The translations under genes and the position numbers were made by a program. A stretch of DNA of 64,000 nt from Actinopolymorpha alba DSM 45243 (GTDB lineage: Bacteria; Actinomycetota; Actinomycetes; Propionibacteriales; Actinopolymorphaceae): contig NZ_KB892766.1 in the NCBI RefSeq assembly GCF_000373925.1, positions 179 through 64,178 of the forward strand. Reading direction: 5' to 3'. Under the pieces are notes generated by a model. It saw only the letters and a list, made by a program, of their open reading frames with translations, searched no databases and was not told the origin of the DNA. Positions 5,116 to 19,005 of the stretch are shown one piece after another; position 1 is the stretch's first letter, and each line of letters starts with the position of its first letter.

Positions 5116-6540
5116 ATGTGCGGGGTGGACGACGATGCAGAGTCGAGGGCGCTGATGGCAGGGCGGGAAGCGGCGGACGGGGCGCGGGCGCGTTCCACTG
5201 AGGCGGCGTACGTCGAGACCGAGCGGGCGCTGCTCGGCCGGCTGCCGGAGCACAAGTCCGTCGAAGGGGCCTCGCTCGAGCCGATCCGCCTGCTCTGCGA
5301 ACTCCTCGGCGATCCCCAGCAGGCCGCGCCGGTCATCCACCTCACCGGCACCAACGGCAAGACCACCACGGCTCGGATGATCGACTCGCTACTGGTGGCG
5401 TTCGGGCTCCGGACCGGTCGGCTCACCAGCCCGCACCTGGCTGAGATCCGCGAGCGGATCACGCTGTCCGGGGAGCCGATCTCGCCGGAGCGGTTCGTCG
5501 AGATCTACTCCGAGGTGATGCCGTTCGTCGACCTGGCCGATCAGCGGTTGGGCCGGCCGATGTCGTTCTTCGAGGTCGTGACCGGCCTGGGGTTCGCGGC
5601 GTTCGCCGACGCACCTGTCGACGTGGCCGTGCTGGAGGTCGGGCTCGGCGGCACCTGGGACACCACCAACGTCGCCGCCGGCAAGGTGGCGGTCGTGACC
5701 CCGATCGCGGTGGACCACACGAAGTACCTCGGCGCGACGCCGGTCGAGATCGCGGGTGAGAAGGCCGGCATCATCAAGCCCGGTGCCATCGCGGTGATCG
5801 CCCAGCAGGAGCTGGAGGTGGCCGAAGTGCTGATGCGGCGGGCCGCCGAGGTGGGCGCGACCGTCGCCCGCGAGGGGCTGGAGTTCGGGGTCGTCGACCG
5901 GGAGCTCGCGGTCGGCGGGCAGCAACTCGCCCTCAAGGGACTCACCGGCACCTACGACGGGATCTACCTCCCCCTCCACGGGGTCCACCAGGCACACAAT
6001 GCGGCCTGCGCGCTCGCCGCGGTCGAGGCGTTCCTCGCCGGCGGGGTCGTCGAGGGCGAGGGCCTGGACGCCGACCTGGTACGCGAGGGCTTCGCGAACG
6101 TCAGCTCACCTGGCCGGCTCGAGGTTGTCCGCCGTAGCCCCACCGTCATCCTCGACGCCGCTCACAACCCGCACGGTGCGGCCGCGGCCGCGGCGGCGAT
6201 GACCGAGGCGTTCGTGTTCGAGCCTCTCATCGGTGTCGTCGGCATGATGCAGGACAAGGACATCGAGGGTGTCCTCGAGGCGTTCGAGCCGGTCATGGCC
6301 CGGATCGTCTGCACCCAGAACTCCACCCAGCGCGCCATGCCGGCCGCCGAGCTCGCGGAGCTCGCGATCGACGTCTTCGGCGAGGACCGGGTGGATATTG
6401 CCGCCCGGCTCGACGACGCGCTGGACCTCGGCGTCCGGCTCGCCGACGAGGGGAGTACGGCGATGGGGAGCGGCGGCGTACTCGTCACCGGCTCCGTGAT
6501 CACCGCCGGTGAGGCGCGGGTCCTTTTCGGAGGCCGGTGA
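5116..6540 (+). CDS. folC: folylpolyglutamate synthase / dihydrofolate synthase
   Basis: Mur-ligase family enzyme that adds glutamate to dihydropteroate or folates using ATP. The ATP-binding loop is HLTGTNGKTTTARMI, followed by TSPHLAEIRERI and the metal-binding region FFEVVTGLGFAAFADAPVDV. VGLGGTWDTTN and the C-terminal domain (LDAAHNPHGAAAAA) are also present. From the ATG at 5116 the protein is 474 aa, within the family range. The frame is open upstream to a GTG at 5035, and an ATG at 5155 is an alternative with GAGGG ahead of it, so the exact start is uncertain. The gene ends 7 bp before the DUF4233 gene. Confidence 0.95.
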   Translation: MCGVDDDAESRALMAGREAADGARARSTEAAYVETERALLGRLPEHKSVEGASLEPIRLLCELLGDPQQAAPVIHLTGTNGKTTTARMIDSLLVAFGLRTGRLTSPHLAEIRERITLSGEPISPERFVEIYSEVMPFVDLADQRLGRPMSFFEVVTGLGFAAFADAPVDVAVLEVGLGGTWDTTNVAAGKVAVVTPIAVDHTKYLGATPVEIAGEKAGIIKPGAIAVIAQQELEVAEVLMRRAAEVGATVAREGLEFGVVDRELAVGGQQLALKGLTGTYDGIYLPLHGVHQAHNAACALAAVEAFLAGGVVEGEGLDADLVREGFANVSSPGRLEVVRRSPTVILDAAHNPHGAAAAAAAMTEAFVFEPLIGVVGMMQDKDIEGVLEAFEPVMARIVCTQNSTQRAMPAAELAELAIDVFGEDRVDIAARLDDALDLGVRLADEGSTAMGSGGVLVTGSVITAGEARVLFGGR

Positions 6541-15937: not shown

Positions 15938-17210
15938 GTGGCGTTGTCGATCAGGCTGCGGCAGCAGGAAACGCCGCCGCCATGGTTGCGGTGGGTGACC
16001 GACCGGCTGAGGGGATACGCGCGGGTGTGGGAGTGGCTTGGCGGCGCGGAGGCGGCCCAGTTGGTCGAGGCGCCGCGGCGGGTTGATGACCAGCGAGCCA
16101 CTTCCGCGCCGGCAGGGGACGGTGATCCGCAGCGGCTCGCCTCCATCACCGCGGCCTACCACGCCCAGGGGCGGACCGGTTTGGCATTTGTCTGGCGGCG
16201 TCCCGCGGTCGGCGCGCCGGTCGAGGTGATCGCTGCCGGTTCGGCACCGCTGCCGCCGGGCCCGCGTACGTCGTGCCTCCCAGCCGGTGAGCTCCTGGGT
16301 CGGCTGCGCGACTTCAGTTGCTGGTCGTCGATCTCGGTCCGCCACGACGGGCTCCGCAGCGTCGAGGCTGACGGGCAACGGAGCCGTTCCCACCCTCGGG
16401 CGCCCGCTCACACCTCCACCGCGACGCTCGAGTCCGGCCTGCTCAGTGTGTGGGAGGGGCCGTTCGTCGTCGCGGTGTTGGCGACGCCGGTGCCCGCGCC
16501 GGAATTCGTGCGCCGGAATTCGTGCCCCTGGTCGAGGAGGCCGCGGACCTGGCCCGCCAGGCGAAGGCTCGGGCCGACTCCTCGCCGGACCATGCGGTGG
16601 CGTACGACCGGGCTCGGGCCTGGCACCGCGAGCTCCGCGGCGCGGAGAGTCACGGGCTGTGGCGGGTGGGGGTGCTCGCCGGTGGCACCGACGAGCGGGC
16701 CGCCCGGTCGCTGGCTGGGCTCGTGGTGGCGTCCTTCGACCTAGGCGATCAGGCGTACACGCTGGTTCCCGGCCTCTCGGTCGGGGGCTTCCCCGCGGAC
16801 GGTGGTCTCCCCGCGGTCGGCGCGGGCGACGACGCAGACCTGGTGGGATCGCAACTGTTGGCCGCCTTGACCAGGCCGCCGGCGGTGGAGATTCCCGGGA
16901 TCCGGCTGACCGTCCCGTTCGGCGTTCGATGTCACTCCCGAGCCGATCGAGGACCCGGCGTCGGCCGGCAACGGTGCGGTGAACGAACGCATCTGGCTCG
17001 GCACGGTGCTCGATCGGCAACGCCGGCCGGCGTTGCCGATGACGCTCGCGTTGCCAAGCCTGAACCGCCACACGTTCGTCTGTGGCGCGACCGGTGCCGG
17101 CAAGTCACAGACCGTCCGAAGTCTTCTCGAGCAGGCGACCGCGGCCGGCATCCCGTGGCTGGTCGTCGAACCCGCGAAGGCGGAGTACCGCCGGATGGCC
17201 GTTGCCGAGC
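15938..17210 (+). pseudogene. HerA/DUF87-type ATPase gene, frameshifted and truncated
   Basis: Three successive frames carry parts of one protein. Frame 1 (15938 to about 16510) ends in VPAPEF. Frame 2 (about 16510-16922) resumes with PEFVPLVEEAADLARQAKA. Frame 3 (about 16922 onward) holds the P-loop FVCGATGAGKSQTVRSLLEQ and LVVEPAKAEYRRMA. The first break is a perfect 14-bp tandem duplication (GCGCCGGAATTCGT twice, about 16495-16522). Homology to DUF87-type ATPases is lost after EYRRMA near 17205, where a protease remnant begins. Such ATPases usually pump or translocate DNA or work with nucleases; this copy is dead. Confidence 0.8.
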
Positions 17211-17579
17211 GCGGCTATGACCGACTCGGCAAGGGCGGCAACGAATGGGCTATCTCTGAAGCGCTCGGTCAGCTCACCGGCCGACGTGCAGGTGTGATCA
17301 CACTGGACGCGACGCCTGGCGCAGAAGCCAAGACCGAGGCAACTCTTCGTGATCTCCTCGATCACGGTAAACCAGTGATTCGTCGGAACAATTCCGAGTG
17401 CCGATCGACACAACAAGTTGCCGAACAGGCTCTTCGGTGCCCACGCGTATGAGGTTACGGAGGTCAACAATGGACAGGTTGAGCTACGTAACCCGTGGGG
17501 CGATTATCATCCACACCGCAGGAGCACGAGCGATTTTCTCGCGTATACGCGCGGGATGGTTGCGACCCTTAAGGACTAG
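17211..17579 (+). pseudogene. calpain-like (C2) cysteine protease, C-terminal remnant
   Basis: Directly fused in frame to the ATPase remnant is a segment reading GYDRLGKGGNEWAISEAL, GQLTGRRAG and TLRDLLDHGKPVI. A +1 shift at about 17380 leads into VGTI, then LFGAHAYEVTEVNNGQVELR and NPWGDYHP, ending at the TAG at 17579. HAY and NPWG are the calpain His and Asn active-site motifs. The N-terminal half with the catalytic Cys is absent, so the product cannot be an active protease. A deletion that joined two neighbouring genes explains the arrangement best. The 89-aa gene follows 23 bp later. Confidence 0.7.
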
Positions 17580-17602
17580 AAGTACACCGGAGGAAGCACA
17601 TT

Positions 17603-17872
17603 ATGACCCAGCCCCCGTTGGGGACGAAGCTCAAGCTTAGTCGTGGCACGATCGATCACTCCAGGCTCGCCAGTTTGGCAGTCCTTCGGCTGCTGCCTGC
17701 GGAGCAGGGCATCAAGAGCAGAGGGGCGGAACTCCTTGTGGTGGTGGACAAGGAAGAGCAGGAGGTCCAAGTCAACGTCGGCGAGACGTTCCAGGTGCGC
17801 GACCAGGTGTGGCGGCTGGATTCGGTTGTGAATGAGGCGGAGTTCGCCGCGACGATCAGCCGCATTTACTGA
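17603..17872 (+). CDS. hypothetical 89-aa protein behind the calpain remnant
   Basis: An intact small soluble protein (MTQPPLGTKLKLSRGTIDHS...) with a predicted beta-rich C-terminal half: GAELLVVVDKEEQEVQVNVG, then ETFQVRDQVWRLDSVVN. GGAGGAAG lies a few bases before the ATG, so translation is well supported. I do not recognise the family with certainty. It follows the protease relic closely and was presumably its operon partner, possibly an inhibitor, immunity protein or substrate adaptor; that is inference from position only. Confidence 0.65.
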   Translation: MTQPPLGTKLKLSRGTIDHSRLASLAVLRLLPAEQGIKSRGAELLVVVDKEEQEVQVNVGETFQVRDQVWRLDSVVNEAEFAATISRIY

Positions 17873-18315: not shown

Positions 18316-19005
18316 CTACGGCTCGAAGCGATAACCCATGCCGGGTTCGGTGATGAGGTGGCGCGGGTTCGCCGGATCGGGTTCGAGTTTGCGGCGCAGC
18401 TGCGCCATGTAGACGCGAAGGTAGTTGGTCTCGGTGGTGTAGCCGGGTCCCCACACCTCCTGCAGCAGTTGGCGTTGCCCGACGAGCCGGTTGGGTGCGC
18501 GTACCAACGTCTCCAGGAGGTGCCACTCGGTGGGGGTGAGGCGTACGTCCGTCCCGTCGCGGGTCACCCGCTTGGCGGCGAGGTCGACGGTGAACGCCTC
18601 CGTCGTGACGACGGGCTCGCCGTCCCCGCCGGGCTGGCCTCGGCGCACGGCCGCCCGGAGCCGGGCGAGGAGTTCGTCCATCCCGAACGGCTTGGTCACG
18701 TAGTCGTCGGCGCCCGCGTCGAGGGCGCTGACCTTCTCACCTGAGGAGTGCCGAGCGGACAGCACGATGATCGGGACCTGGCTCCAGCCGCGCAGCCCGC
18801 GGATGACGTCCATCCCGTCGATGTCGGGCAGTCCCAGGTCGAGTACGACGACCTCCGGACGGGCGCGGGCCGCGAGGTCCAGCGCGCTGCGACCGTCGGC
18901 GGCGACATCCACGGCGTACTGCCGGGCTCGTAGGTTGATCGCGAGGGCCCGGGCGAGTTGGGGTTCGTCCTCGACGACGAGGACCCGCACCGCGTGGCCG
19001 CTCAC
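18316..19005 (-). CDS. kdpE: KdpE response regulator
   Basis: An OmpR/PhoB-type regulator of 229 aa that should activate the kdp operon at low potassium. The receiver domain has VLVVEDEPQLARAL at the start, the phosphoacceptor Asp in VVVLDLGLPDIDG, and the conserved Lys in DDYVTKPF. The C-terminal winged helix carries RDGTDVRLTPTEWHLLETLV and EVWGPGYTTETNYLRVYMAQ. It overlaps kdpD by 4 bp (ATGA) and is the last gene of the kdp operon. Confidence 0.97.
   Translation of the reverse strand: MSGHAVRVLVVEDEPQLARALAINLRARQYAVDVAADGRSALDLAARARPEVVVLDLGLPDIDGMDVIRGLRGWSQVPIIVLSARHSSGEKVSALDAGADDYVTKPFGMDELLARLRAAVRRGQPGGDGEPVVTTEAFTVDLAAKRVTRDGTDVRLTPTEWHLLETLVRAPNRLVGQRQLLQEVWGPGYTTETNYLRVYMAQLRRKLEPDPANPRHLITEPGMGYRFEP

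What the first reader, a model, noticed from the sequence alone, without database searches (positions are those of the whole stretch)
17211..17872. ATPase-calpain fusion relic with an intact small partner gene
A DUF87/HerA-type ATPase gene loses homology just after its P-loop region and continues in frame into the last third of a calpain-like cysteine protease (HAY...NPWG). An 89-aa gene with a strong ribosome binding site follows 23 bp later. This may be the remains of an ATPase + calpain protease + small partner system, such as a toxin or defence module, with the small gene still kept.
Basis: partly seen in the sequence, partly recalled or inferred. Interest (0 to 1): 0.6.

Follow-up and report, generated by a model that had tools for sequence, protein, structure and literature searches.

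The report
Dead toxin cassette, intact immunity gene
In a soil actinomycete (probably Actinopolymorpha), a broken motor-protein gene runs into a broken protease gene and is followed by an intact small gene; relatives show this is the wreck of a swappable protease-toxin cassette whose likely immunity gene (Pfam DUF6406, function unknown until now) is still whole.

Summary
A HerA-like (DUF87) ATPase gene breaks off at 17201-17212 and continues in frame into the middle of a calpain-like (C2) protease. A further frameshift at 17379-17402 puts the HAY...NPWG end in another frame. Two more frameshifts lie upstream. The 89-aa gene (17603-17872) is intact and belongs to Pfam DUF6406. Intact ATPase + calpain + DUF6406 operons exist: in all nine ATPase-calpain loci found, DUF6406 follows the calpain, usually within about 60 nt. 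Outside the ATPase context, DUF6406 also follows WXG-type and giant proteins with a C-terminal calpain domain. The same ATPase family elsewhere precedes other toxins (ADP-ribosyltransferase, Scabin-like, DddA-like deaminase, glutamine deamidase), mostly behind a Pro/Glu-rich leader, and close relatives swap them. Best reading: a dead polymorphic-toxin cassette (HerA ATPase, calpain toxin, DUF6406 immunity protein) with an orphan immunity gene. I found no earlier report of DUF6406 as calpain immunity or of this ATPase as a constant toxin partner, but only an open-access library was searched. ATPase-driven export is inferred, not shown. Intactness of the small gene is not by itself evidence of selection (P about 0.59 by chance).

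The parts
15995..16500 (+). HerA-like ATPase relic, N-terminal region (frame of 15902)
   Evidence: tblastn to G018 ATPase and to A. pittospori orthologue; no stops in this frame
16496..16523 (+). 14-bp tandem duplication GCGCCGGAATTCGT x2 that shifts the frame
   Evidence: located by script and by alignment to the intact orthologue L083
16504..16915 (+). ATPase relic, second frame (frame of 15901)
   Evidence: 67% identity to L083 orthologue over 138 aa
16916..16922 (+). 1-nt insertion, second ATPase frameshift
   Evidence: nucleotide alignment with L083
16924..17200 (+). ATPase relic, third piece, with Walker A motif GATGAGKS at 17084-17107
   Evidence: 63% identity to L083 orthologue; PF01935 7.6e-08
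17201..17212 (+). deletion junction: ATPase joined in frame to the middle of the calpain gene (about 2.2 kb missing)
   Evidence: ATPase homology ends and calpain homology (GYDRLGKGGNEW...) begins here
17213..17378 (+). calpain-like protease relic, middle part, in the ATPase frame
   Evidence: aligned column by column to 17 calpain homologues
17379..17402 (+). frameshift inside the calpain relic
   Evidence: homology changes frame between PVI and ADRHNKL
17403..17579 (+). calpain-like protease relic, C-terminal part with catalytic His (HAY) and Asn (NPWG), and stop codon
   Evidence: alignment; PF00648
17590..17595 (+). ribosome binding site GGAGGA ahead of the small gene
   Evidence: sequence
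17603..17872 (+). intact 89-aa DUF6406 gene, predicted calpain-toxin immunity protein (now an orphan)
   Evidence: PF19944 1.8e-11; follows the calpain gene in other genomes; all-beta model, mean pLDDT 83.7
18316..19005 (-). kdpE-like response regulator, conserved flank of the cassette site
   Evidence: 80.6% nt identity from here on to A. pittospori L083, where an intact ATPase orthologue lies at the same place

Best explanation
The locus is the wreck of a polymorphic-toxin cassette. In the intact form a HerA-like ATPase is encoded just ahead of a toxin with a disordered Pro/Glu-rich leader and a C-terminal toxin domain, here a calpain-like cysteine protease, and then of an immunity gene, here DUF6406. 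Proposed working: (1) the ATPase recognises the leader and threads or loads the toxin for export (inferred); (2) the calpain domain cleaves proteins of a competing cell (inferred from the conserved Cys-His-Asn triad and domain position); (3) DUF6406 binds the calpain domain and keeps the producer and its kin safe (inferred from strict pairing, tandem copies, and lipoprotein forms next to other calpains). In this genome a deletion of about 2.2 kb fused ATPase to calpain, three frameshifts broke the reading frames, and only the immunity gene remains readable, as an orphan that may still protect against related strains.
For: Triads in G018, G302 and seven further ATPase-calpain loci, all nine with DUF6406 after the calpain; gaps of -4 to +57 nt where measured. 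DUF6406 directly follows the 2,502-aa protein with a C-terminal calpain (G428) and WXG-like + calpain proteins (G349, G282, G079, G009), in tandem copies in three of them. DUF6406-like lipoproteins follow calpains in G412, G462 and G355, and a non-lipoprotein form in G512. The same ATPase family precedes ADP-ribosyltransferase (3.5e-28, 3.8e-29), Scabin-like (3.3e-37), DddA-like deaminase (6.6e-18) and glutamine deamidase (1.3e-06) proteins. Toxin swap: S. scabiei and S. stelliscabiei ATPases are 91% identical but carry a Scabin-like versus a calpain toxin. Catalytic Cys, His and Asn kept in all aligned calpains except one G018 copy. Orthologous site in A. pittospori has an intact ATPase and no calpain or DUF6406; four other genomes of the genus lack the cassette. 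No other copy of this ATPase in this genome.
Against: No experiment shows toxicity, protection or export. Many DUF6406 proteins have no calpain neighbour (22 of 28 loci in the class sample), so the domain is not exclusively an immunity protein. Many calpains (Frankia-like and others) lack a detectable DUF6406 partner. The predicted DUF6406 fold matched no known protease inhibitor, which is inconclusive. The intact small gene could survive by chance: P about 0.59 at the local frameshift rate. The membrane partner candidate is not tied to the ATPase in this family.
Confidence: 0.72

Rival explanations
1. It is a relic of an intracellular defence (abortive infection) module like HerA-Sir2 or HerA-DUF4297: the ATPase senses phage and switches on a calpain that kills the own cell, and DUF6406 is a regulator.
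For: The ATPase scores against PADLOC HerA models and mad8 (2.7e-18) and its nearest solved relatives are HerA-type proteins.
Against: The calpain, DUF6406 and the 700-aa partner have no PADLOC match. Calpain-DUF6406 also exists without the ATPase in WXG-type proteins or with lipoprotein partners, and the ATPase partners carry classical secreted-toxin domains with disordered leaders and variable C-termini.
Confidence: 0.15
2. DUF6406 is a chaperone, export adaptor or activating subunit of the calpain rather than its inhibitor.
For: It is coupled to the toxin gene (overlap of 4 nt in two loci); small partners of T7SS toxins can be export factors (general knowledge).
Against: It is retained as an intact gene next to dead toxins (window; G281; G018, whose two calpains are one lacking Cys and His and one frameshifted), occurs in tandem copies, and has lipoprotein forms, all typical of immunity proteins.
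Confidence: 0.15
3. The small gene is simply a not yet decayed part of a dead operon, with no present function (compatible with the best explanation for what the cassette once was).
For: At the local frameshift rate the chance of no hit in 270 bp is about 0.59; A. pittospori and S. scabiei hold DUF6406 fragments in decay.
Against: Ribosome binding site, family-invariant residues and full length are all kept. Not decisive.
Confidence: 0.45
4. The frameshifts are assembly errors and the gene is a working ATPase-calpain fusion.
For: The genome is a draft of 127 contigs.
Against: A 14-bp tandem duplication and the loss of most of the ATPase and of the calpain Cys half are not base-call errors; the fusion would lack the catalytic Cys.
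Confidence: 0.03

Closest known systems
[quoted passage not shown] 2012, PMC3482391)
   Same: Variable C-terminal toxin domains, adjacent immunity gene, leader at the N-terminus, cassette turnover and decay.
   Different: The constant partner is a single HerA-like ATPase; the held text has no calpain toxin, and it ties FtsK/HerA motors to T7SS rather than to a stand-alone route.
Bacterial calpains, peptidase family C2 (Rawlings 2015, PMC4631099)
   Same: Calpain domain with Cys-His-Asn, some with WXG100 domains suggested to be T7SS toxins.
   Different: No operon or ATPase neighbour is mentioned in the text (term counts 0).
HerA defence pairs (HerA-Sir2, HerA-DUF4297)
   Same: HerA-type ATPase next to an effector enzyme.
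   Different: Here effectors vary, carry disordered leaders and are followed by immunity genes; no PADLOC match for the effector.
Orphan immunity gene arrays of T6SS (Vibrio cholerae, PMC5361080)
   Same: Loss of the effector with retention of its immunity gene after cassette displacement (from the abstract).
   Different: Different delivery machinery and an actinomycete host; only one immunity gene left here.

Membership tests
Polymorphic toxin system | constant N-terminal part with interchangeable C-terminal toxin domains | tested here: met
   ATPase-adjacent proteins share Pro/Glu-rich leaders (MSEL...) but end in calpain, ART or Scabin-like domains; deaminase and amidase members have more divergent N-termini. 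Tested on relatives; the window copy has lost its leader
Polymorphic toxin system | immunity gene directly downstream of the toxin gene | tested here: met
   DUF6406 after the calpain in 9 of 9 ATPase-calpain loci and in the window; immunity function itself not tested
Polymorphic toxin system | toxin exported and active on other cells | not testable with these tools
   needs experiment
Peptidase family C2 (calpain) | catalytic Cys, His and Asn | tested here: not met
   window relic keeps His and Asn but the Cys half is deleted; relatives have all three
HerA/DUF87 ATPase | Walker A motif and HerA central domain | tested here: met
   GATGAGKS at 17084-17107, PF01935 7.6e-08; the rest of the domain is deleted in the window
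DUF6406 (PF19944) | score above Pfam's gathering cut-off | tested here: met
   44.5 bits against 26.9
Type VII secretion (ESX) toxin locus | WXG100/LXG domain and EccC-type multi-domain ATPase in the locus | tested here: inconclusive
   none noticed beside the ATPase in the window or triads, but not searched with models; WXG-like calpains with DUF6406 exist in other genomes
HerA-effector defence system | known defence effector as partner | tested here: not met
   PADLOC finds only the HerA part
Known protease inhibitor folds (e.g. chagasin, cystatin) | structural match of DUF6406 | tested here: inconclusive
   best matches are CcsBA and S-layer beta domains, Z about 10; no inhibitor among the rows

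The most novel reading that the evidence does not exclude
A HerA-like ATPase, often encoded near a conserved, probably membrane-anchored 650-700-aa protein, forms an undescribed export route for polymorphic toxins in Actinomycetota, with disordered Pro/Glu-rich leaders as the signal; DUF6406 is a new immunity family that inhibits its calpain toxins.
Probability: 0.35. Interest if true: 0.78.

Novelty: new variant of a known kind. Interest (0 to 1): 0.52.

Why it matters
It gives a Pfam family of unknown function (DUF6406) a testable role as immunity protein of calpain-type protease toxins, and ties a HerA-like ATPase family of Actinomycetota to a changing set of toxins. If the ATPase proves to be the exporter, it would be a further delivery route for polymorphic toxins in Streptomyces and relatives.

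Tried and rejected
A single-sequence scan with the 89-aa protein found nothing in genome contigs; the ATPase alignment worked. Weak DUF6406 hits inside 1500-aa proteins at order level are below the cut-off and were ignored. Foldseek/VIA gave no protease inhibitor for DUF6406; top matches are CcsBA and CcmF beta domains and S-layer DUF1608. That partner is present once in every Actinopolymorpha genome checked, with or without the ATPase, so strict co-inheritance was rejected for this family. Purifying selection on the window gene could not be tested: the nearest homologue found is only 49% identical. Literature: no paper in the library mentions DUF6406; calpain with polymorphic toxin appears in three papers, none describing this operon from what was read.

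Full report
What is in the window. The window lies in contig 60 of an 8-Mb draft genome. From about 15995 the plus strand encodes pieces of a HerA-like ATPase in three successive frames. Against the intact orthologue in A. pittospori the breaks are a 14-bp tandem duplication (16496-16523) and a 1-nt insertion near 16918. The Walker A motif is at 17084-17107. At 17201-17212 ATPase homology stops and calpain homology starts in the same frame; relative to G018 about 530 ATPase residues and 212 calpain residues are missing. A further frameshift at 17379-17402 puts the HAY...NPWG end in another frame, ending with TAG at 17577-17579. Twenty-three nt later, behind GGAGGA, an intact 89-aa gene follows (17603-17872), a member of Pfam DUF6406.

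Do intact loci carry the three genes together? Yes. G018 (same family, another genus) has ATPase (884 aa), two calpains and DUF6406 in a row; the first calpain lacks the catalytic Cys and His, the second has both but is frameshifted. G302 has ATPase (927 aa), calpain (489 aa) and DUF6406, the last two overlapping by 4 nt. A scan of genome contigs with the ATPase alignment returned 79 loci. Seven of these have a calpain next to the ATPase (Microlunatus speluncae and six Streptomyces), and all seven have DUF6406 behind it; Streptomyces sp. A012304 has two calpains and three DUF6406 copies.

DUF6406 follows calpains outside the ATPase context too. In G428 it overlaps the end of a 2,502-aa protein with a C-terminal calpain; in G349, G282, G079 and G009 it follows proteins with a WXG-like N-terminal part (my reading of the sequence) and a calpain C-terminus, twice over in three of them. 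With a profile, DUF6406-like domains were also found in lipoproteins directly behind calpains in G412, G462 and G355, and in a non-lipoprotein form in G512. That position is where immunity proteins sit. The pairing is not exclusive: only 6 of 28 DUF6406 loci in the class-level sample have a calpain within 1.5 kb (one of them a relic), and many calpains have another or no partner.

The ATPase is a constant partner of changing toxins. The gene after the ATPase often starts within a few nt of its stop and encodes a Pro/Glu-rich leader followed by a different C-terminal domain: calpain, ADP-ribosyltransferase (3.5e-28 and 3.8e-29), Scabin-like (3.3e-37); DddA-like DNA deaminase (6.6e-18) and papain-fold glutamine deamidase (1.3e-06) proteins follow other members at 100-200 nt. 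S. scabiei and S. stelliscabiei have ATPases 91% identical, yet one has the Scabin-like toxin plus DUF6406 debris and the other a calpain plus DUF6406. This is direct evidence of cassette exchange. Other members of the ATPase family have neighbours that are not recognisable toxins, for example a DUF1361 membrane protein in Actinomadura, so the family is not solely a toxin partner. A 650-700-aa protein with an RLGW motif lies within 10 kb in 58 of 79 loci, but in this bacterial family it is mostly a stand-alone gene.

History of the site. Next to kdpE, A. pittospori has the intact ATPase orthologue, then an IS630-type element (named from its sequence) and other debris, with no calpain or DUF6406. 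Four other genomes of the genus have no such genes there. The relic is the only copy of this ATPase in the window's genome. The system is therefore dead in this strain. Retention of an intact DUF6406 gene beside broken toxins recurs in G281 and G018, which recalls orphan immunity genes left by effector displacement in T6SS (PMC5361080, abstract). In this one locus it is not statistically meaningful: at the local rate of frameshifts the chance of none in 270 bp is about 0.59.

Mechanism. Shown: families, order, pairing, triad conservation in relatives, toxin exchange, lesions. Inferred: protease toxicity, inhibition by DUF6406, export driven by the ATPase. A model of the window's DUF6406 is an all-beta domain (mean pLDDT 83.7) without a convincing inhibitor match. 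Defence-type rivals are weaker because the effector partners look like secreted toxins and only the HerA part matches defence models.

Known or new. Polymorphic toxins, bacterial calpains and orphan immunity genes are known. I found no report of DUF6406 as calpain immunity or of this ATPase family as a constant toxin partner, within the limits of an open-access library.

Noticed in passing
L114 and L117 (Streptomyces scabiei 87.22 and S. stelliscabiei): ATPases 91% identical at the same locus, but the toxin gene differs (Scabin-like versus calpain); S. scabiei keeps DUF6406 debris. A natural toxin swap.
   Followed up: partly
58 of 79 ATPase loci, e.g. L097:6215-8347, L086:6314-8224; own genome G000:C43:16002-17840: A conserved 650-700-aa protein (LFxPGQRLGWxYRD, long N-terminal helices, no Pfam match) lies near the ATPase; AlphaFold model made (mean pLDDT 76.8) but not searched.
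   Followed up: partly
L032:9422-10390: A calpain homologue in G018 with catalytic Cys changed to Gly and His to Thr, beside a second, frameshifted copy with the triad: a likely pseudoprotease or dead toxin.
   Followed up: no
L063, about 6140-6430 (G302): Between ATPase and calpain lies a fused scrap: a toxin leader (VSELYGTD...) joined to an end (NPGSSASVAIPASDL) that resembles the end of a small gene downstream of the toxin in S. scabiei; probably an older toxin-immunity pair lost by deletion, as in the window.
   Followed up: no
L033:7400-9400 (A. pittospori, second ATPase locus): ATPase followed by a protein with a C-terminal membrane segment, two paralogous small genes of the kind seen in L134, and a DUF6406 fragment: possible immunity array.
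   Followed up: no
L198:10520-10903 and L088:13957-14358: Similar-looking 128-134-aa proteins (no Pfam match) follow ADP-ribosyltransferase toxins; candidate ART immunity family.
   Followed up: no
Actinomadura ATPase loci, e.g. L099:6401-7063: The gene after the ATPase is a DUF1361 membrane protein instead of a toxin.
   Followed up: no
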